Origin: CAVQYV01 sp963718295 [NCBI: uncultured Methylomirabilota bacterium]
Lineage (GTDB): Bacteria; Methylomirabilota; Methylomirabilia; CAVQYV01
Assembly: GCA_963718295.1 (NCBI GenBank)
Contig: CAVQYV010000011.1
Location: forward strand, 62,001 to 126,000
DNA: 64,000 nucleotides
Direction: 5' to 3'
Of the stretch, positions 55,495 through 63,462 are shown one piece after another (within the stretch, counting starts at the first letter, position 1; every line of letters begins with the position of its first letter). The notes under the pieces were generated by a model, which saw only the letters and a list, made by a program, of their open reading frames with translations, did not search any database and had not been told where the DNA came from. The translations under genes were made by a program, and so were the position numbers.

Positions 55495-56499
55495 ATGGCA
55501 GAGCCTCTCCTGAAGATCCAAGGCCTCAGAAAGCATTTCCCCTTGAAGGAAGGACCCTTCTCGCGGGTTCGAGGGACCCTCATCGCTGTGGACGGGGTGG
55601 ATTTGGAGGTTCAGGACGGAGAGATATTGGGATTGGCGGGGGAATCGGGGTGCGGGAAATCCACGGCGGCAAAGCTGATCCTCAGACTCCTGGAGCCGAC
55701 TGGGGGGGAAGTGGTCTTTGGGGGCAGGCCGATCTTCGAGCTCAACAAGCAAGAACTTCGGGCACTGAGACCCCAAATGCAGATCATCTTCCAGGATCCA
55801 TACTCCTCCCTCAACCCGAGGATGCGAGTGGCCGACATTGTGGGCGAGGGCATCCTGATCCATGGAGGGTACCAGAAGGGACAGAGACGGGATATCGTGG
55901 CGAAGATGTTGGAGAAGGTGGGGATCTCCCCCCAACTGATGAATCGGTATCCCCACGAGTTCAGCGGCGGGCAGCGCCAACGAATCGGAATCGCCCGGGC
56001 CTTGATCACCCGTCCAAGATTGGTGGTCGCCGATGAGCCCGTTTCCGCATTGGATGTTTCCATCCAGGCTCAAGTCCTCAATCTGATCATGGATCTGAAG
56101 GAAGAGTACCAGTTGACTTGCCTTTTCATCGCCCATGATCTGCGGGTGGTGGAATACATCAGCGACCGGGTGGCAATCATGTATCTCGGGAAAATCGTGG
56201 AGGTTGCTCCCAGTCGGGAGATCTATCTTCATCCCCTTCATCCTTACACGGAGGGGCTCATATCGGCGATCCCCCTGCCAGTGGTGAAGGATTCGAGGAG
56301 AGGAGTCCTGCTGGAGGGAGATCCCCCCAGCCGCATCGGTCGCCAGCCGGGGTGCCGATTCTATGGTCGCTGCCGATCACGGCTTCCCAGATGCTCCGGG
56401 GAGGATCCGCCTCTCCAGGAGGTCGCGCCCGGCCATCTGGTTGCGTGCAATCTCCATGGTCCAGCGTCACCGATCACCCAAGGGGATCGAGAAGGATAG
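55495..56499 (+). CDS. Peptide ABC transporter ATPase, DppF/OppF type
   Basis: Partner of the preceding ATPase, three bases away. LKIQGLRKHFPLKEG, Walker A GESGCGKST, IFQDPYSSLNPRM, FSGGQRQRIGIARAL, Walker B LVVADEPVSALDVS and the C-terminal CRFYGRCRSRLPRC are typical. The 334-residue length is normal. The substrate is unknown; these ATPases are often shared by several peptide importers. Confidence 0.89.
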   Translation: MAEPLLKIQGLRKHFPLKEGPFSRVRGTLIAVDGVDLEVQDGEILGLAGESGCGKSTAAKLILRLLEPTGGEVVFGGRPIFELNKQELRALRPQMQIIFQDPYSSLNPRMRVADIVGEGILIHGGYQKGQRRDIVAKMLEKVGISPQLMNRYPHEFSGGQRQRIGIARALITRPRLVVADEPVSALDVSIQAQVLNLIMDLKEEYQLTCLFIAHDLRVVEYISDRVAIMYLGKIVEVAPSREIYLHPLHPYTEGLISAIPLPVVKDSRRGVLLEGDPPSRIGRQPGCRFYGRCRSRLPRCSGEDPPLQEVAPGHLVACNLHGPASPITQGDREG

Positions 56500-56521: not shown

Positions 56522-57118
56522 ATGAAGCCCACCTTTATCAGCAAGAGAGAGCGCCCTGGAGGCGAGAGTCAAGGGGGATTTCATAGGATCTCCCATTACG
56601 ATTTCCATAAGGAAGTCTCCGCCTTGCCTCCGGGAAGAGACATACTGAAATGCATACAGTGTGGGACGTGCAGTGCCAGCTGCCCCGTATTCAAGCGCCA
56701 TCCCCAGATGAATCCGAGGAAGATCATCGCCCAAGCGATTCTGGGATTGAAGGAGGAAGTGATTCATTCCGACATCATCTGGATCTGCGCGAAATGCCAG
56801 ACCTGTATCGTTCGGTGTCATAAAGACGTCCAGCCAGGTGAGATCATCGGCGCGATCCGTACCATAGCCATCAGGAGCGGGGTGAAGGGGCCGGGGGCCC
56901 GCCACACTCAGGCCTTTGCGAGAGATATCTATCGCTTCGGCAAGCTCAACGAGGCCACATTGCCCTTGGTCACGCTCCGTCATAGAATTCTGGGGATGCT
57001 TCCATTGGCCATCAAGATGTTCTTCCGGGGAAAGCTCCCATTCCCCATACCGAAGAGGACCAAGAACATCCGGCAGGTGAGAGCCCTCTTCGATCGATTT
57101 GGCAAGGGGTCAAAATAA
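56522..57118 (+). CDS. hdrC: Heterodisulfide reductase subunit C-like iron-sulfur protein
   Basis: Electron carrier with two [4Fe-4S] clusters: Cys44, 47, 50, 54 (CIQCGTCSASCP) and Cys89, 92, 95, 99 (CAKCQTCIVRC). ATG 56522 gives 198 residues; an upstream open frame is ignored because this start is in the gap after oppF with AAGGA before it. The C-terminus continues past the usual HdrC length with a basic segment. Its stop overlaps the HdrB start (TAATG), and it should shuttle electrons between HdrA and HdrB. Confidence 0.9.
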   Translation: MKPTFISKRERPGGESQGGFHRISHYDFHKEVSALPPGRDILKCIQCGTCSASCPVFKRHPQMNPRKIIAQAILGLKEEVIHSDIIWICAKCQTCIVRCHKDVQPGEIIGAIRTIAIRSGVKGPGARHTQAFARDIYRFGKLNEATLPLVTLRHRILGMLPLAIKMFFRGKLPFPIPKRTKNIRQVRALFDRFGKGSK

Positions 57119-57996
57119 TGAAGAGCTATGCGTACTATCCCGGATGCGCAGCCGAGGCCTCAACCCGCGAGGCCGACAGGGCGACCCGGGAGGTATTGCA
57201 TCACATGGGCGTTCCGATTCACCTGGTGGAGGATTTCGCCTGCTGCGGGGCAGGGTGCCTGTCGGAGGAATTTCCCAGGTTCAATGCGGCCCTCAATGCG
57301 AGAAATATGGCGATCGCCGAGAGAGAGGAAAGCGACATCCTGACCCTGTGCGACACCTGCCTTCTGAGTTTCCGCAAGAGCCAGATGGACCTCAAGGAGC
57401 CGGACCTCCGGGGCGAGGTCAACGAAGAACTGAAGAAATTCGGGCTCGAGTACAAGGGAGAAGCACGGGTCATTCATTTTCTCCACCTCCTCTCCGAGCT
57501 GGGTCCGGAAAAGATCAGATCCATGGTGACAAGACCCCTGAAAGGGGTGAGGATCGCCCCTTTCTATGGCTGCCAGATCGTACGGCCCCATCATGTCCTG
57601 GGTGCAGATTCGGCGGAAGAACCGAGGATCCTGGAGGAATTGATCGAGGCGTTGGGGGGAACCCCCCTCCCCTACAGGGAGAGATTGGATTGCTGCGGCT
57701 TTCATATTCTCCTGGTGGATGAAAAGGCCTCGCTTTCCATGGCCTCTCAATGCCTGGAGGGGGCAAAGAAGATCCAGGCAGATGTGATGGTCACCCCCTG
57801 CACCCTCTGCCATATCAGCCTGGATATGTATCAGGGGAAGGCGGGCAGATTGGCGGGCAAGAACTATGGCATCCCGATTCTCCATCTGGCCCAATTGGTA
57901 GGCCTTGCCCTGGGGATCGACCCGCGGAAGCTGCAGCTTCACAGGCATTTTGTCCCTGCCAAGCGGCTCCTCTCCAGGATCGGGGGAAGTCGATGA
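57118..57996 (+). CDS. hdrB: Heterodisulfide reductase subunit B-like protein
   Basis: Catalytic-type subunit with two CCG domains: Cys10...Cys42-Cys43...Cys78...Cys81 (FACCGAGC, LCDTC) and a second set with Cys192-Cys193, Cys228 and Cys231 (LDCCGFH, PCTLC). These ligate the paired noncubane [4Fe-4S] clusters that reduce disulfides in methanogen HdrB. The 292-residue length is normal. In bacteria the substrate is unknown; ferredoxin, a thiol or a protein disulfide are candidates. Confidence 0.9.
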   Translation: MKSYAYYPGCAAEASTREADRATREVLHHMGVPIHLVEDFACCGAGCLSEEFPRFNAALNARNMAIAEREESDILTLCDTCLLSFRKSQMDLKEPDLRGEVNEELKKFGLEYKGEARVIHFLHLLSELGPEKIRSMVTRPLKGVRIAPFYGCQIVRPHHVLGADSAEEPRILEELIEALGGTPLPYRERLDCCGFHILLVDEKASLSMASQCLEGAKKIQADVMVTPCTLCHISLDMYQGKAGRLAGKNYGIPILHLAQLVGLALGIDPRKLQLHRHFVPAKRLLSRIGGSR

Positions 57997-58068: not shown

Positions 58069-61000
58069 ATGAAAATCGATGAGATGAAGATGATGTCAGA
58101 CCCCGGCAAGATCCCCCATGACCGAAGGGTGGGCGTGTTTCTCTGCAAGTGTGGAGATAACATCTCGAGGACGGTGGATTTGGGTGAGTTGCGGGAGTTC
58201 GCCCTGAGCCTCCCGAATGTCTCCTTTTCCGCCTTTCAGCAATTCACCTGCTCGTCCGAGGGGCAAGGGATCATACAGAAGGCAATCCAGGAATACGGCC
58301 TCAATGCGGTGGTGATCGGCTGTTGTACCCCAAAACAATACGAGGAGATGTATCGCGAATGCATTGCTGCCGCAGGCCTTAACCCTTACCTTCTGGAAAT
58401 CGTGAATCTCCGAGAGCAGGTTTCCTACCCTCATCACGATGACCCCCGGGGAGCCACCCAAAAAGCGAAGCTCCTGGTGAGGGCGGCCGTCCAGAAGGCA
58501 AAGCTGCTCGAGCCGCTGACCGTCAAGAAGGCCAAGATATCCCGGGAGGTGGCCGTGATCGGCGGGGGGATCGCCGGGATCAACGCCTCGCTTTATCTTG
58601 CCAAGATAGGGCACAAAGTGCATCTCATCGAGAAGGAGCCTACGATCGGGGGCAATATGGCGAGCCTGGTGAAAACCTTCCCCACCGATGACTGCGCCAT
58701 GTGCACCCTCTCCCCCAAGATGGATGAGGTGAGCAAGAACAAGAATATAACCTTGTATACCTATTCGGAGGTGGACAAGGTCGAGAAAACGCGAGAGGGG
58801 TTATCGCTCCACATCAGGAAGAAACCGAGATACGTGGACGAGGATCTATGCACCGGTTGTAATAAATGTACGGAGGTCTGCCCGGTGAAGATCCCCAATA
58901 CCTACGACAGGGGACTGAGATCGACGAAATCGGCTATCTATAAGCAATTCCCGGCGGCTGTCCCCAACAAATACACCATCGAGCGACTGGGCATTCCCCC
59001 CTGCCGTCAAGCCTGTCCCATCCAGCAGTCGGCGCAGGGGTATGTGGCCCTGGTGGCACAAGGAAAATTCCCCGAGGCGTTGGCGACCATCCGTCGCGAT
59101 AATCCCTTGCCCACGGTCTGTGGCCGGGTCTGTAACCATCTCTGTGAGGATCAATGCTCGAGAGGGAAGATGGACGACAGCATATCCATTGCGGGGATCA
59201 AACGCTTCGTGACTGAGTTCGGTTTCCAGAACCGGGACAATCTCCTCTTCTCGCGGCCGGATCACCCGGGAGAGCCTCTCAATATGATGAATCTGCTGGC
59301 TCCGCCGCCTTCCTCTACCGATCTTGACCCATCCGGGCTGGAAGGACTATCAAGTCCGGCAGTGACAGATGGTCCAGAACCAGGGGCAAGTGGACCCGGC
59401 CTTGCGAAAGAGAGACCTCATCGTCCATGGCCTGAAGATCCCAAGAAGGTGGCGATCATCGGCGGGGGTCCTGCCGGTCTTGCCTGCGCCCATGAGATCG
59501 TCTTGAATGGCCACCAGGCGACCATTTTCGAGGCCTCCCCAGAGGCGGGTGGGATACTGCGCTGGGGGATCCCGGCCTTCCGGCTTCCGCCCGAATACCT
59601 GCGGCACGACATCGATTTCATCCAGGACCTGGGAGTCAAGATCCAGACTGGATGCCGAATTGGGAAAGATATGTCCTTCCAAGATCTGCTCGATGGCTAT
59701 GATGCCGTTTTCCTGTCCATGGGGCTGGGAGAAAACGTGAAGCTGCGGATGCCGGGAGCAGACCTGGAAGGGATATCCTATGGGTGCGACATCTTGCGGG
59801 ACTGCAAATGGGATGAGTTGCCGAAATTGGGGAGGCAGGTCCTGGTCGTCGGTGGAGGCAATGCCGCCATCGATACCGCAAGGACCTTGATCCGGCTGGG
59901 ATGTCAGGTGACGATGATCTGTCTGGAGACCAGGGAGACCATGCCAGCCATCAAAGAAGAGATCTTGGAAGCCGAGGCGGAGGGCATCCAGATCAAGCCC
60001 GCCATTTCCCCCAAGCGGTTCCTGGGAGACCCTGAGGGAAGGGTGAGTCAGGTGGAGTGCGTCCAGGTGGAAAGGATCGAGAAGGACCCTGATGGTCGCC
60101 TCAAGCCCGTCTGTCGAGAGGGTACCGAGTTCATCATGGATGTGGACAACGTCATCTTGGCCGTAGGCAATCGATCCGACTGCGCTTTCCTGCCTCCGGA
60201 GATCGAGGTCGATCCCAGGGGGCTGATCCGCGTGGATCCATCTTCCTATCGCACGAGCCTCAGAAAGGTCTATGGCGGAGGGGATCTGATCACCGGGCCC
60301 ACTTCGGTGGTGGAAGCCATCAGCTCGGGAAAGGCGGTAGCCCGTCAGATGATCTGTGACTTCGAACAGGTTAGCTACCCGGAGAGATTTACGGACTTGC
60401 CGGGTCCTTCCATCGATGCGCAAGATGCGATCGAGCGAAACGGGGGGTACTTTGAACCCCAAGGGCGGACAAGAATGCCCAGGATCGCCCTGGAGGGCAG
60501 GAACAGCTTCCAGGAGGTGGAGCTGGGCTTTTCGGAAGAAGCGGTGATTGCAGAGGCCAAGAGGTGCCTCAACTGCGGTGGGTGCAGTGATTGCCGTGAG
60601 TGCGAGAAGGTGTGTGAAGCCAAAGCGATCGACTACTTTCAGACGGAAAAGGTCGTTCCCGTCACGGTGGGGGCCCTCATCCTTGCCACCGGCTTCCAGG
60701 ATTTCGATCCGACTCATCTGCACTATAGATATGGCAGGTACAAGAACGTCATCACTCAGTTTCAGTTGGCCCGGATGATGGACCCTCTGGGGCCGACTGC
60801 AGGAAAGATCATCAGACCCAGCGATGGCCAGGAAGCCAAGCGCTTCCTCATGGTCCAGTGTGTCGGATCGCGCACCGGCGAGCAGAATACCCAGGAGGGA
60901 CACCCGTACTGTTCGCGGGTCTGCTGCATGGTGGCACTGAAACACGCAAGTCTCATCAAGAAATACTTCGTGGATGACGCCCAGATCTTCATCTGCAATA

Positions 61001-61713
61001 TCGACATTCGGGCCTTCGGCAAAGGATATGAGGAGTACTATGAAAAGGTGAAGACGATGGGGGTGAAGTTCATCAAGGGCCTTCCGGGAGAGATCCTGGA
61101 GGATCAGCAGAGCCAGGATCTCATGGTGCAGGTGGAGGACATGTCGACCTCGACCCTCTTGGAGATTCCCGTTGATCTGGTGGTATTGTCCACTGCTACT
61201 GAGCCCGCCGGGGTCAATGAACTCCTCAAGCAACTGGGGGTCTCCCGGGATGAGTCGGGTTTTGTGAAGGAGTTCCACCCCAAGATCAAGCCCGCCGATA
61301 CAAGCGTCAAGAATATCTTCGTCTGTGGCGCTGCCCAGGGACCCAAGGATATCTCCGATGCCATTGCTCAATCCGGATTGGCAGCCATGGCGGCCGCTTC
61401 TTATGTGGGCGATGGATATGTCGTGCTGAACCCCCTGATTGCTGAGGTCGACCCGGAGCTATGTCGAGCCTGCGGGCGCTGCGAGAAGGAGTGCGAATTC
61501 CAGGCCGTCCGAGTCGACGAGAAGAAGCTCTCGGCAGAGGTGGAAGAGATCATGTGCGAGGGTTGCGGGAAATGTGCGGTTGTCTGTCCCACGGGGGCCC
61601 TTTCGGTCAAGTCCTTCAAGGAAAAACAGCTCCTGGCAGCAATCGATGGGTTGATGGAAGGTGCGGATGGCAAAGAAGCAGTGGAGATGGCGGAAACCTC
61701 CTCCAAATCCTGA
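58069..61713 (+). CDS. hdrA: HdrA-like flavoprotein with inserted GltD-type NAD(P)H domain
   Basis: Likely bifurcating core, 1214 residues against about 650 for methanogen HdrA. Order: HdrA N-domain (about 18-155); first half of the FAD domain (GGGIAGINAS, 165) with the HdrA cysteine segment FPTDDCAMCTLSP; ferredoxin site from Cys261 (CTGCNKCTEVCP). Then an inserted glutamate-synthase-small-subunit module (about 305-800) with its cysteine-rich N-domain (from Cys312: CRQACP, CGRVCNHLCEDQC), a flavin fold GGGPAGLA (465) and an NAD(P)H fold GGGNAAIDTA (595). A CLNCGGCSDCREC cluster follows (833), then the rest of the HdrA FAD domain and two C-terminal ferredoxin sites (1132 and 1163). Confidence 0.9.
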   Translation: MKIDEMKMMSDPGKIPHDRRVGVFLCKCGDNISRTVDLGELREFALSLPNVSFSAFQQFTCSSEGQGIIQKAIQEYGLNAVVIGCCTPKQYEEMYRECIAAAGLNPYLLEIVNLREQVSYPHHDDPRGATQKAKLLVRAAVQKAKLLEPLTVKKAKISREVAVIGGGIAGINASLYLAKIGHKVHLIEKEPTIGGNMASLVKTFPTDDCAMCTLSPKMDEVSKNKNITLYTYSEVDKVEKTREGLSLHIRKKPRYVDEDLCTGCNKCTEVCPVKIPNTYDRGLRSTKSAIYKQFPAAVPNKYTIERLGIPPCRQACPIQQSAQGYVALVAQGKFPEALATIRRDNPLPTVCGRVCNHLCEDQCSRGKMDDSISIAGIKRFVTEFGFQNRDNLLFSRPDHPGEPLNMMNLLAPPPSSTDLDPSGLEGLSSPAVTDGPEPGASGPGLAKERPHRPWPEDPKKVAIIGGGPAGLACAHEIVLNGHQATIFEASPEAGGILRWGIPAFRLPPEYLRHDIDFIQDLGVKIQTGCRIGKDMSFQDLLDGYDAVFLSMGLGENVKLRMPGADLEGISYGCDILRDCKWDELPKLGRQVLVVGGGNAAIDTARTLIRLGCQVTMICLETRETMPAIKEEILEAEAEGIQIKPAISPKRFLGDPEGRVSQVECVQVERIEKDPDGRLKPVCREGTEFIMDVDNVILAVGNRSDCAFLPPEIEVDPRGLIRVDPSSYRTSLRKVYGGGDLITGPTSVVEAISSGKAVARQMICDFEQVSYPERFTDLPGPSIDAQDAIERNGGYFEPQGRTRMPRIALEGRNSFQEVELGFSEEAVIAEAKRCLNCGGCSDCRECEKVCEAKAIDYFQTEKVVPVTVGALILATGFQDFDPTHLHYRYGRYKNVITQFQLARMMDPLGPTAGKIIRPSDGQEAKRFLMVQCVGSRTGEQNTQEGHPYCSRVCCMVALKHASLIKKYFVDDAQIFICNIDIRAFGKGYEEYYEKVKTMGVKFIKGLPGEILEDQQSQDLMVQVEDMSTSTLLEIPVDLVVLSTATEPAGVNELLKQLGVSRDESGFVKEFHPKIKPADTSVKNIFVCGAAQGPKDISDAIAQSGLAAMAAASYVGDGYVVLNPLIAEVDPELCRACGRCEKECEFQAVRVDEKKLSAEVEEIMCEGCGKCAVVCPTGALSVKSFKEKQLLAAIDGLMEGADGKEAVEMAETSSKS

Positions 61714-61752: not shown

Positions 61753-62280
61753 ATGAGAGAAAAGATAAGGAATTCGGAAAGCCAGAGCCAAGGATACGAA
61801 CCGCTCATCCTGGGATTTGCCTGTAACTGGTGCGGCTATGCTGCAGCCGACCAAGCAGGGATGAGCAAGATTCAGTACCCGACCAATATCAAGCTCCTCC
61901 GGGTCATGTGCCTGGGCAGGGTGGATCCATATCTGGTAACCAGGGCTTTTCTGAAAGGGTTTGATGGGGTGATGCTGATTGGATGTCATATCGGTGAGTG
62001 TCACTACGTGAGTGGGAACAAGAACGCAGTGCTCGTCGTGGAGCGGATCAAAGAGGTCCTGGATACGATCGGATTGGGGAAAGAGAGGCTGCGGCTGGAT
62101 GAGGCCAGCGCGGGAGAGGCTCCCAAGTTCGCGGCGGTGGTAAGGGAATTCATCCAAGAATTGAGGCCTTTGGGTCCGAATCCTCTGCGGGCCTTTGCTC
62201 CGGAGATAGGGGCCGCTGCCAATCCAGGGGGGGCGGGCCAAGGGATTGAAGATACTCCAGTGATACCCTCGAATCGGTGA
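61753..62280 (+). CDS. mvhD: MvhD-like [2Fe-2S] protein
   Basis: Delta-subunit family that passes electrons between HdrA and a partner enzyme. Five cysteines typical of the family are present: Cys24 and Cys27 (CNWC), Cys53 (VMCLGRVDP), Cys78 and Cys83 (GCHIGECHYVSGN). The 175-residue protein has a C-terminal extension beyond the usual core. No hydrogenase large or small subunit (MvhA, MvhG) is in the window, so the partner may be the GltD part of HdrA or the downstream proteins. Confidence 0.9.
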   Translation: MREKIRNSESQSQGYEPLILGFACNWCGYAAADQAGMSKIQYPTNIKLLRVMCLGRVDPYLVTRAFLKGFDGVMLIGCHIGECHYVSGNKNAVLVVERIKEVLDTIGLGKERLRLDEASAGEAPKFAAVVREFIQELRPLGPNPLRAFAPEIGAAANPGGAGQGIEDTPVIPSNR

Positions 62281-62331: not shown

Positions 62332-63462
62332 ATGAGCCAAGAATCGAGACTGAAGCCAAGCGATCTGGAGTGCATCCAGTGCAATAAGTGTTCTATGTCC
62401 TGCCCGGTCCACCGGGTGGACCCGGAGTACTCGCCGCGGGGAATGATCCTCCGCTTGTTGATGGGAGAAGAAGAATCCCTGATCCATGACCGAAATATCT
62501 TTCGTTGTTTGAGCTGCGATCTCTGTCGGGAGATCTGTCCGTCCCACACCAAGTTCGTCGATTTCATGCGCCAATCCAGAGGCCAGGCCCGTGAGTCAGG
62601 CCTTACCAATGATTGCAAGCACGGGGTCCTGTTATCTTCGATCCAGAAACTGATGGCCAACCTGGATTTGCCCCAAAGGCGCCTCCGATGGTCCGAGGGG
62701 CTTCAAATCGACCGCGACTCTGCGATCTGCTATTTTGTGGGCTGTCTCCCCATCTTCGACCAGGTTTTCCCCCATACCGCGAGCACGAAGATTGCCCGGA
62801 ATACCCTTGAGATCTTGAACCGGGTAGGGGTCAGGCCGGCGGTGTTTGAAGAGGAGAAATGCTGTGGCTACGATCAATATTTTAGCGGAGATCAAGAGAC
62901 ATTTGAGAAGCTTGCCCGGCATAACATGGCTCTTCTGAAAGAGAGAGGGATTACCCGGGTGGTCACCTCATGTCCGGAGTGCTTGAATTCCTTGAAGTTC
63001 ATCTATCCGACTCTCGACCGATCCTTCACTCCGGAGGTGCTCCATATCACCCAGTTTCTCGCCCAGCGATTGGAGGAAGGCAGCCTGAAATTCAAGGAGG
63101 TCAACCGGAAGGTGACCTATCACGATTCGTGTCGCCTGGGTCGGGTTGCCAAGGAGTACGAGTCCGCCCGGAAAATCCTGAGGGCGATTCCGGGATTGGA
63201 ATTGGTGGAGATGCCACGGAATCGGGAGACCGCACCTTGCTGCGGAGTGGGCAATTTCTCCAGCTGCGATGCCCATACCAAGTTCCTCCAGAATGAACGC
63301 CTTAAGGAAGCCGCTTCGGTGGGAGCTGAACTTCTGAGTACGGCATGCCCCAAATGCCGAATCCATTTCAATTGCTATTTGGATGGTCAGCCGATCGAAG
63401 AGCTCTTGGGCCCTCAAATCGAGGACGTCACTGCGATCATCTCACAGGCATTGGAGGGATGA
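62332..63462 (+). CDS. HdrD-like iron-sulfur/CCG-domain protein
   Basis: Fuses HdrC-like and HdrB-like parts in 376 residues: two [4Fe-4S] sites (Cys14-17-20-24 and Cys59-62-65-69), then two CCG domains (KCCGYDQ with CPEC, and APCCGVG with CPKC). Proteins of this type partner FAD-linked oxidases (as in GlcF and lactate-utilisation systems) or act as HdrD. The next gene encodes such an oxidase, five bases downstream, which favours that pairing. Confidence 0.87.
   Translation: MSQESRLKPSDLECIQCNKCSMSCPVHRVDPEYSPRGMILRLLMGEEESLIHDRNIFRCLSCDLCREICPSHTKFVDFMRQSRGQARESGLTNDCKHGVLLSSIQKLMANLDLPQRRLRWSEGLQIDRDSAICYFVGCLPIFDQVFPHTASTKIARNTLEILNRVGVRPAVFEEEKCCGYDQYFSGDQETFEKLARHNMALLKERGITRVVTSCPECLNSLKFIYPTLDRSFTPEVLHITQFLAQRLEEGSLKFKEVNRKVTYHDSCRLGRVAKEYESARKILRAIPGLELVEMPRNRETAPCCGVGNFSSCDAHTKFLQNERLKEAASVGAELLSTACPKCRIHFNCYLDGQPIEELLGPQIEDVTAIISQALEG

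What the first reader, a model, noticed from the sequence alone, without database searches (positions are those of the whole stretch)
58069..61713. HdrA with a GltD-type NAD(P)H:flavin module inserted inside it
The insert (about residues 305-800) interrupts the FAD domain of HdrA next to its internal ferredoxin site, and it carries its own cysteine-rich domain, a second flavin fold and a pyridine-nucleotide fold. The protein thus appears to hold two flavins, an NAD(P)H site and at least four iron-sulfur sites in one chain. In known Hdr complexes the NAD(P)H or hydrogen input is supplied by separate proteins (Flox, Mvh). A built-in input would make a self-contained bifurcating or confurcating enzyme.
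Basis: partly seen in the sequence, partly recalled or inferred. Interest (0 to 1): 0.72.

Follow-up and report, generated by a model that had tools for sequence, protein, structure and literature searches.

The report
HdrA with built-in NAD(P)H module
This is a real, large electron-handling enzyme subunit with a built-in NADH/NADPH-binding module; that kind of design has been in print since 2009, but this version lacks a residue thought to be needed for energy-saving electron splitting and sits beside an unusual dehydrogenase-like gene.

Summary
ORF 58069-61713 (+, 1214 aa) is an HdrA whose internal ferredoxin domain is split, between its two 4Fe-4S motifs, by a ~530-residue GltD/NfnB-type module. 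It lies in a run HdrC-HdrB-HdrA(GltD)-MvhD-HdrD-like-GlcD-like. The kind is known: HdrL of Desulfobacterium (2009), Moorella HdrA, ANME-1 HdrA9/10/11 (2022), 'type III HdrA' (2025). I found it in 23 of 474 genomes of two sampled groups, and in one MAG titled Pseudomonadales (L001) that has the same six-gene order. Unusual here: the window and L001 have Ala where HdrA has the Glu (E356) proposed to mark a bifurcating flavin (Glu in the 25 other HdrA-GltD rows), while the partner Lys is kept; and an Arg pair of Nfn-type relatives is Leu-Glu. The 'self-contained bifurcating enzyme' reading is therefore only partly supported. I favour a soluble complex wiring a GlcD-like flavoprotein and disulfide-type Hdr sites to NAD(H), with weakened or no bifurcation at the HdrA flavin. 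Substrate, direction and complex formation are inferred; the structure prediction failed (pLDDT 52). New variant of a known kind.

The parts
56522..57118 (+). HdrC-like, two 4Fe-4S motifs (the ORF opens at 56363; 56522 chosen by me as the likelier start)
   Evidence: (TIGR03290 81 bits, cut-off 160); 47% identical to L001 HdrC
57118..57996 (+). HdrB-like, two intact CCG motifs of the kind that hold non-cubane clusters
   Evidence: (NF042965 219 bits, cut-off 500; TIGR03288 207 bits, cut-off 345); 48% identical to L001 HdrB
58069..61713 (+). HdrA with inserted GltD-type module, 1214 aa
   Evidence: 51% identical to L001
58069..58986 (+). HdrA N-terminal part, residues 1-306: N-terminal domain, FAD Rossmann, first motif of the internal ferredoxin domain (261-271), Cys equivalent to Cys197 (C212)
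58987..60579 (+). inserted module, residues 307-837: Fer4_20 Cys domain (310-387), FAD motif (from 461), NAD(P) motif GGGNAA (595-600), LE in place of RR (619-620)
60580..61713 (+). HdrA C-terminal part, residues 838-1214: second internal Fd motif (839-849), rest of the flavin domain with A901 (E356 equivalent) and K958 (K409 equivalent), C-terminal two-cluster ferredoxin domain
60769..60771 (+). codon of Ala901, the position of the Glu (E356) proposed as marker of bifurcating HdrA
   Evidence: PMC12054007 and PMC9430772
61753..62280 (+). MvhD/FlpD-like (electron adapter)
   Evidence: PF02662 E 1.6e-47; 54% identical to L001 MvhD
62332..63462 (+). HdrD-like (HdrC+HdrB type) with two 4Fe-4S motifs and two CCG motifs, no membrane-like stretch
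   Evidence: 44% identical to L001
63383..64000 (+). GlcD-like FAD_binding_4 flavoprotein, cut by the window end; ORF opens at 63383, true start not fixed
   Evidence: PF01565 E 1e-4, 22.4 bits, cut-off 26.4; 40% identical over 165 aa to L001 GlcD-like, which matches PF01565 at 5.5e-21

Best explanation
It is the HdrA subunit of a soluble Hdr complex, of the HdrL / type III kind, with its own NAD(P)H port. The GltD-type module exchanges a hydride between NAD(H) and its FAD, and passes electrons through its own and HdrA's internal clusters to the HdrA flavin and on to the HdrCB, MvhD and HdrD-like subunits. The GlcD-like flavoprotein next to it is the likely donor or acceptor at the far end, through the HdrD-like protein. 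In this lineage the HdrA flavin has most likely lost or weakened bifurcation, so the complex works mainly as a linear wire between NAD(H), a 2-hydroxyacid-type flavoprotein substrate and a disulfide-type site. SHOWN: architecture, motifs, gene order shared with L001, residue changes. INFERRED: complex formation, electron path and direction, NAD preference, loss of bifurcation. UNKNOWN: the substrate.
For: Domain matches to solved HdrA and GltD/Nfn chains. Same order of six genes in L001 at 40-54% identity. E356 equivalent is Ala in the window and L001, and Glu in 25 of 25 other HdrA-GltD rows and in 55 of 55 other rows of the tree alignment. Papers hold that K409 contacts N5 of FAD, that E356 positions K409, and that their presence was proposed to separate bifurcating from non-bifurcating HdrA (PMC12054007, PMC9430772; passages); PMC12054007 found both in all its type III sequences. 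The RR that follows the second Rossmann motif in 5 of 5 solved chains whose alignments were shown, NADP-linked Nfn among them, is LE in window and L001 and RR in 24 of 27 HdrA-GltD rows; that RR binds the 2'-phosphate of NADPH is recalled. HdrB and HdrD-like keep both CCG motifs; no window subunit has a membrane-like stretch (highest 19-residue Kyte-Doolittle mean 1.54). An HdrA with built-in GltD and reported NADH-dye activity is known from Moorella (PMC9430772).
Against: K409 equivalent (K958) is kept. E356 as a marker is proposed, not proven by mutation in anything I read; it is absent in 87 of 401 archaeal HdrA. Eight of 63 strongly conserved columns differ in both window and L001, so general drift explains part of the change. 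The NAD(P) motif is GxGxxA, which PMC12054007 associates with NADP. NADH-dye activity is also reported, though low (0.5 U/mg), for Sporomusa HdrA, for which no GltD domain is described, so such activity does not by itself prove the module's role. NAD+ reduction from a hydroxyacid is uphill without a second, stronger donor, which favours confurcation (established knowledge). The GlcD-like link rests on two operons and a weak family match (TIGR00387 56 bits, cut-off 568).
Confidence: 0.5

Rival explanations
1. It bifurcates or confurcates at the HdrA flavin as other Hdr complexes do, with NAD(H) in place of, or besides, ferredoxin; for example hydroxyacid plus reduced ferredoxin to NADH, like the lactate dehydrogenase/Etf system (recalled).
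For: K958 and the Cys197 equivalent are kept; all cluster motifs looked for are intact; PMC12054007 proposes NADH-linked bifurcation for type III HdrA; confurcation would make hydroxyacid-to-NAD transfer downhill (recalled).
Against: Glu to Ala at the marker position in both members of this lineage; the module sits in the ferredoxin docking domain, and PMC12054007 argues that it could block ferredoxin.
Confidence: 0.25
2. An NADH-driven disulfide reductase (HdrB or HdrD-like site; DsrC-like or other thiol substrate), to which the GlcD-like gene is an unrelated neighbour.
For: Both CCG proteins keep two full motifs; HdrL of D. autotrophicum is proposed to carry electrons from NADH towards sulfite reduction (PMC2702500).
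Against: HdrD-like and GlcD-like genes follow in the same order in L001, at 44% and 40% identity.
Confidence: 0.15
3. The bifurcating site has moved from the HdrA flavin to the inserted Nfn-like flavin.
For: The module is homologous to the large Nfn chain (5jca_L E 1e-77); PMC9012536 says that NfnB binds the FAD thought to bifurcate and suggests two bifurcation sites in such HdrA; the HdrA site is the one that lost its marker.
Against: The module is also homologous to glutamate synthase small chain and dihydropyrimidine dehydrogenase, which do not bifurcate (recalled); the RR pair of Nfn is not kept.
Confidence: 0.08

Closest known systems
HdrL of Desulfobacterium autotrophicum HRM2 (PMC2702500, 2009; passages read)
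   Different: dsrABC follow HdrL1 and MvhD; the passages do not say where in HdrA the module lies; no GlcD-like partner mentioned there; sequence not compared here
Type III HdrA (PMC12054007, 2025) and ANME-1 HdrA9/10/11 (PMC9012536, 2022); passages read
   Same: GltD/NfnB module (about 500 residues in ANME-1) inserted in the internal ferredoxin domain of HdrA
   Different: archaeal; E356 and K409 both kept in all nine type III of PMC12054007; neighbours given are other hdrA or mvhADG, not HdrD-like plus GlcD-like
HdrA of Moorella thermoacetica in HdrABC-MvhD-MetVF (PMC9430772, 2022; passages read)
   Same: TrxR-like flavin domain interrupted by a GltD domain; NADH-dye activity 190 U/mg quoted
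   Different: 162.8 kDa, with a second TrxR-like half, E and K kept in both; partner is MetVF
Nfn chain 5jca_L and GltD-bearing chains 9n5u_A, 8oh5_C, 9bov_A
   Same: the inserted module itself; in 9bov_A, 9n5u_A and 8oh5_C also the RC[LM]xCG tail after it
   Different: not HdrA; carry RR where the window has LE
Archaeal HdrD/GlcD pairs (PMC10667645, PMC6783470; passages read)
   Same: HdrD with a GlcD-like flavoprotein; lactate oxidation suggested in PMC10667645
   Different: no HdrA-GltD in the same operon is mentioned in those passages

Membership tests
HdrL / type III HdrA (HdrA with inserted GltD) | both halves of HdrA present | tested here: met
HdrL / type III HdrA (HdrA with inserted GltD) | GltD module inside the internal ferredoxin domain | tested here: met
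HdrL / type III HdrA (HdrA with inserted GltD) | E356 and K409 equivalents (both kept in all type III of PMC12054007) | tested here: not met
   A901, K958. This is a property reported for that archaeal set; the type is defined by the inserted GltD
HdrL / type III HdrA (HdrA with inserted GltD) | GxGxxG motif said to mean NAD preference (PMC12054007) | tested here: inconclusive
   the module has GGGPAG at the FAD fold and GGGNAA at the NAD(P) fold; it is unclear which one the paper means
HdrA (curated NCBIfam models) | score over the curated cut-off | tested here: not met
   NF040770 740 of 1100, NF041778 647 of 1400, NF041891 616 of 1300 bits
Electron-bifurcating HdrABC | E/K pair at the HdrA flavin | tested here: not met
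   E replaced by A, K kept
Electron-bifurcating HdrABC | coupled reduction of ferredoxin and a second acceptor | not testable with these tools
   needs purified complex
NfnL/NfnB (bifurcating GltD paralogue) | sequence homology over FAD and NAD(P) folds | tested here: met
   5jca_L E 1e-77
NfnL/NfnB (bifurcating GltD paralogue) | RR pair after the NAD(P) motif (role in NADPH binding recalled) | tested here: not met
   LE instead
Glycolate/2-hydroxyacid dehydrogenase GlcD | curated family score | tested here: not met
   L001 homologue TIGR00387 56 bits, cut-off 568; window copy is cut, PF01565 22.4 bits, cut-off 26.4

The most novel reading that the evidence does not exclude
In this lineage the HdrA flavin has become a plain electron relay, and the energy-coupling (bifurcating) flavin is the inserted Nfn-like one, so a single chain records the hand-over of the bifurcation site from one flavin to another, serving an NADH-linked hydroxyacid dehydrogenase complex.
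Probability: 0.08. Interest if true: 0.72.

Novelty: new variant of a known kind. Interest (0 to 1): 0.36.

Why it matters
Naturally occurring HdrA proteins that keep the cluster motifs and the Lys at the flavin but lose the Glu are a direct test of what makes an HdrA flavin bifurcate. The window and L001 give two such proteins at about 51% identity, with a built-in NAD(H) site that makes assay simple. The operon would also join HdrD/GlcD pairs, described in archaea, to an NAD(H)-linked HdrABC in bacteria.

Tried and rejected
Whole genome of the window: not held, so the end of the GlcD-like gene and what follows is unknown. Structure prediction of residues 15-1214 with L001 and nine plain HdrA rows: mean pLDDT 51.7, pTM 0.36; I drew nothing from it and ran no fold search. 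D-2-hydroxyglutarate idea: in L001 a phosphoglycerate dehydrogenase (SerA) follows the operon, but the flanks (rpiA-like before, serA and fba/pgk/tkt-like after; all but SerA read by eye, gene order recalled from E. coli) look like the native gammaproteobacterial locus, so I dropped SerA as evidence. One origin of all HdrA-GltD: rejected on the HdrA core tree (quick tree, 15 fusion rows against 42 plain: p-AU 2.9e-4; 1e-42 when the long row L128_32 was dropped and 3e-79 when L085 was dropped too); the trees need 6, 5 and 4 changes and cannot tell gains from losses. Search of plasmid records for the fusion: 2 records, neither covering 80% of the query.

Slips and dropped rows. The single-letter E column printed was one residue off; the contexts there and searches give the right one. 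The GlcD query was in a wrong frame; one search repeats the comparison with the L001 protein. The 27 HdrA-GltD rows are the window, L001 and 25 rows from 23 loci (L125 and L128 give two each); pieces of broken frames in L122 and L131 were put among the 17 plain-like rows. One of those 17, a double HdrA (L086, 1673-4846), has Lys, not Glu, at the E356 column in that alignment; it was left out of the tree set because plain rows over 900 aa were dropped (69 of 70 kept), as were gappy rows and rows 88% or more alike. K409 is Gln in the second paralogues of L125 and L128.

Limits of the counts. The sampled groups are those reachable from loci I had. Desulfobacterota and Bacillota, where HdrL and Moorella HdrA are published, could not be sampled; so 'only the window and L001 have the GlcD-like partner' holds for the 23 loci alone, several of them cut by contig ends. 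E-value limits differed between searches (1e-90; 1e-100; 1e-120; 1e-125, where nothing rang and the tool says an empty answer shows nothing).
Full report
WHAT IS THERE. ORF 58069-61713 on the plus strand codes for 1214 residues from an ATG. Residues 18-306 and 838-1196 match solved HdrA chains (5odc_A, E 8e-182 for the whole sequence in two stretches). The part between them matches GltD/Nfn-type chains: 9bov_A E 8e-96, 9n5u_A 4e-94, 8oh5_C 2e-83, 5jca_L 1e-77. Pfam gives Fer4_20 at 310-387 and Pyr_redox_2 at 459-754; NCBIfam's best hit for the module is NF009410 (PRK12771), 471 bits against a cut-off of 516, and its HdrA models also score below their cut-offs. The insertion point is clear: HdrA's internal ferredoxin domain has two CxxCxxCxxxC motifs, here at 261-271 and 839-849, and the module lies between them. 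The FAD motif, the second Rossmann motif and the Cys motifs of the module are all present.

SURROUNDINGS. The gene lies in a run of plus-strand genes with small gaps or overlaps: HdrC-like (56522-57118, start chosen by me), HdrB-like (57118-57996), HdrA-GltD, MvhD (61753-62280), an HdrD-like protein (62332-63462) and a GlcD-like FAD protein that the window end cuts (63383 onward). HdrB and the HdrD-like protein each have two CCG motifs; HdrC and HdrD-like each two ferredoxin motifs; the highest 19-residue Kyte-Doolittle mean in the window proteins is 1.54, in a Rossmann motif of HdrA, so nothing looks like a membrane helix. Upstream are two OppD/OppF-type ABC ATPases and an aminotransferase; upstream of the L001 operon I see other genes (read by eye).

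RELATIVES. A scan of one genome per species gave 69 loci. One, L001 (titled Pseudomonadales bacterium ETNP8_MAG_37), has the whole fusion in one frame; I did not examine every other locus by eye, but the scan lists no other fusion of comparable match. L001 has the same six genes in the same order; identities to the window are HdrC 47%, HdrB 48%, HdrA-GltD 51%, MvhD 54%, HdrD-like 44%, GlcD-like 40% (the last over 165 residues). Its flanks and operon have similar G+C (5' flank 53%, operon 56%, 3' flank 55%). It is rare around L001: 1 of 200 genomes of its phylum, 1 of 244 of its order, 1 of 150 of its family, each time L001's own genome. In the phylum of the KSB1 genome (L063) 4 of 82 genomes have a match at E <= 1e-90, and in the archaeal phylum reached from L027, 19 of 392 at E <= 1e-120; 0 of 5 in a third, small group at E <= 1e-125. 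I scanned the surroundings of all 4 + 19 loci by BLAST against the operon proteins. Of the 19 archaeal loci, 9 show a further HdrA-type frame without the module and 4 an MvhD; several contigs end nearby. L085 (KSB1 group) has HdrC-HdrB-HdrA(GltD)-MvhD and then MvhG- and MvhA-type hydrogenase subunits. L088 and L115 have an HdrD-like gene near it. None of the 23 has a GlcD-like best hit.

TWO RESIDUE CHANGES. In HdrA of Methanothermococcus thermolithotrophicus, K409 contacts N5 of the flavin and E356 positions K409; their presence has been proposed to separate bifurcating from non-bifurcating HdrA (PMC12054007, passages; PMC9430772, passages). The alignment, gapless around E356, puts E356 on window A901 and K409 on K958. 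L001 also has Ala. In 27 HdrA-GltD rows, the 25 others all have Glu; in the 57-row tree alignment all 55 others do. One plain-like double HdrA outside that set (L086, 1673-4846) has Lys at this column. PMC12054007 reports both residues in all its type III sequences, and E356 missing in 87 of 401 archaeal HdrA overall. The change is not alone: of 63 columns conserved at 95% or more in the others, eight differ in both window and L001, so general divergence explains part of it. The second change concerns the nucleotide: all five solved relatives whose alignments were shown read YRR after the second Rossmann motif, as do 24 of 27 HdrA-GltD rows; the window, L001 and L115 read CLET. An acidic residue at that place usually goes with NADH (established knowledge of Rossmann folds). 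Against it, the motif is GxGxxA in all 27 rows.

EVOLUTION. On the HdrA core without the insert, window and L001 form a fully supported pair next to two plain archaeal HdrA (support 88), apart from the other fusions; one clade of all fusions is rejected (p-AU 2.9e-4 with 15 fusion rows against 42; stronger without long rows). This was a quick tree with one kind of support value. It agrees with PMC12054007, which inferred two insertions in archaea, but repeated loss, or movement of the module alone, is not excluded.

WHAT IS KNOWN. PMC2702500 (2009; [quoted passage not shown] PMC12142623 (2025; passages) compares another HdrA with it. PMC9430772 (passages) describes Moorella HdrA with a TrxR-like domain interrupted by a GltD domain, and quotes an NADH-dye activity of 190 U/mg; it also reports 0.5 U/mg for Sporomusa HdrA, for which it describes no GltD domain. 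[quoted passage not shown] PMC12054007 (passages) calls it type III HdrA. In the listings of nine paper searches and the passages I opened, I did not see an HdrA-GltD without E356, or one with HdrD-like and GlcD-like partners; the Appel 2021 review was seen only as a citation.

MECHANISM. I think the most likely role is a soluble complex in which the inserted module serves as an NAD(H) port in place of ferredoxin and the HdrA flavin passes electrons on to HdrCB, MvhD and the HdrD-like/GlcD-like pair, with bifurcation at the HdrA flavin lost or weakened (0.5). Conventional bi- or confurcation despite the Glu loss is the main rival (0.25). Thermodynamics speaks for the rival if the physiological reaction is hydroxyacid oxidation with NAD+. 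The attempted structure model was too poor to use.

VERDICT. Observation confirmed; interpretation partly supported; architecture already known; this lineage is a new variant, mainly of value as a natural test of the E356 marker.

Noticed in passing
L085-L088, L115-L133 (alignment): In the sampled HdrA-GltD rows the GxGxxG motif belongs to the FAD fold (mostly GSGPAG) while the NAD(P) fold reads GxGxxA in 27 of 27, and 24 of 27 have the RR pair. PMC12054007 infers NAD from a GxGxxG motif; most rows here look NADPH-type, closer to the NADPH idea in PMC9012536.
   Followed up: partly
L085:4877-14242: KSB1-group genome with HdrC-HdrB-HdrA(GltD)-MvhD-MvhG-MvhA in one run: a hydrogenase and an NAD(P)H module on one Hdr complex; mvhADG beside type III hdrA is reported for Bathyarchaeota.
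   Followed up: partly
L115:7966-16613: Archaeal locus with HdrA-GltD of the CLET type, an HdrD-like frame of 608 aa overlapping its end, then a 1031-aa frame with two HdrA-like parts.
   Followed up: no
G002:C30:116487-118535 (L075): An 843-aa open frame is reported for both a GltD-type match and an FlpD/MvhD match just after it: apparently a GltD-MvhD fusion.
   Followed up: no
L002:1330-3339, L003:9986-11995: Plain archaeal HdrA genes with in-frame TGA codons (1 and 2), possibly selenocysteine; they are the nearest plain HdrA to the window on the tree.
   Followed up: no
L001:8512-16514: An anaerobe-type Hdr operon sits between an rpiA-like and a serA gene of a MAG titled Pseudomonadales (ETNP8), and no match at E <= 1e-100 was found in the other 149 sampled genomes of its family: it may be a recent transfer.
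   Followed up: partly
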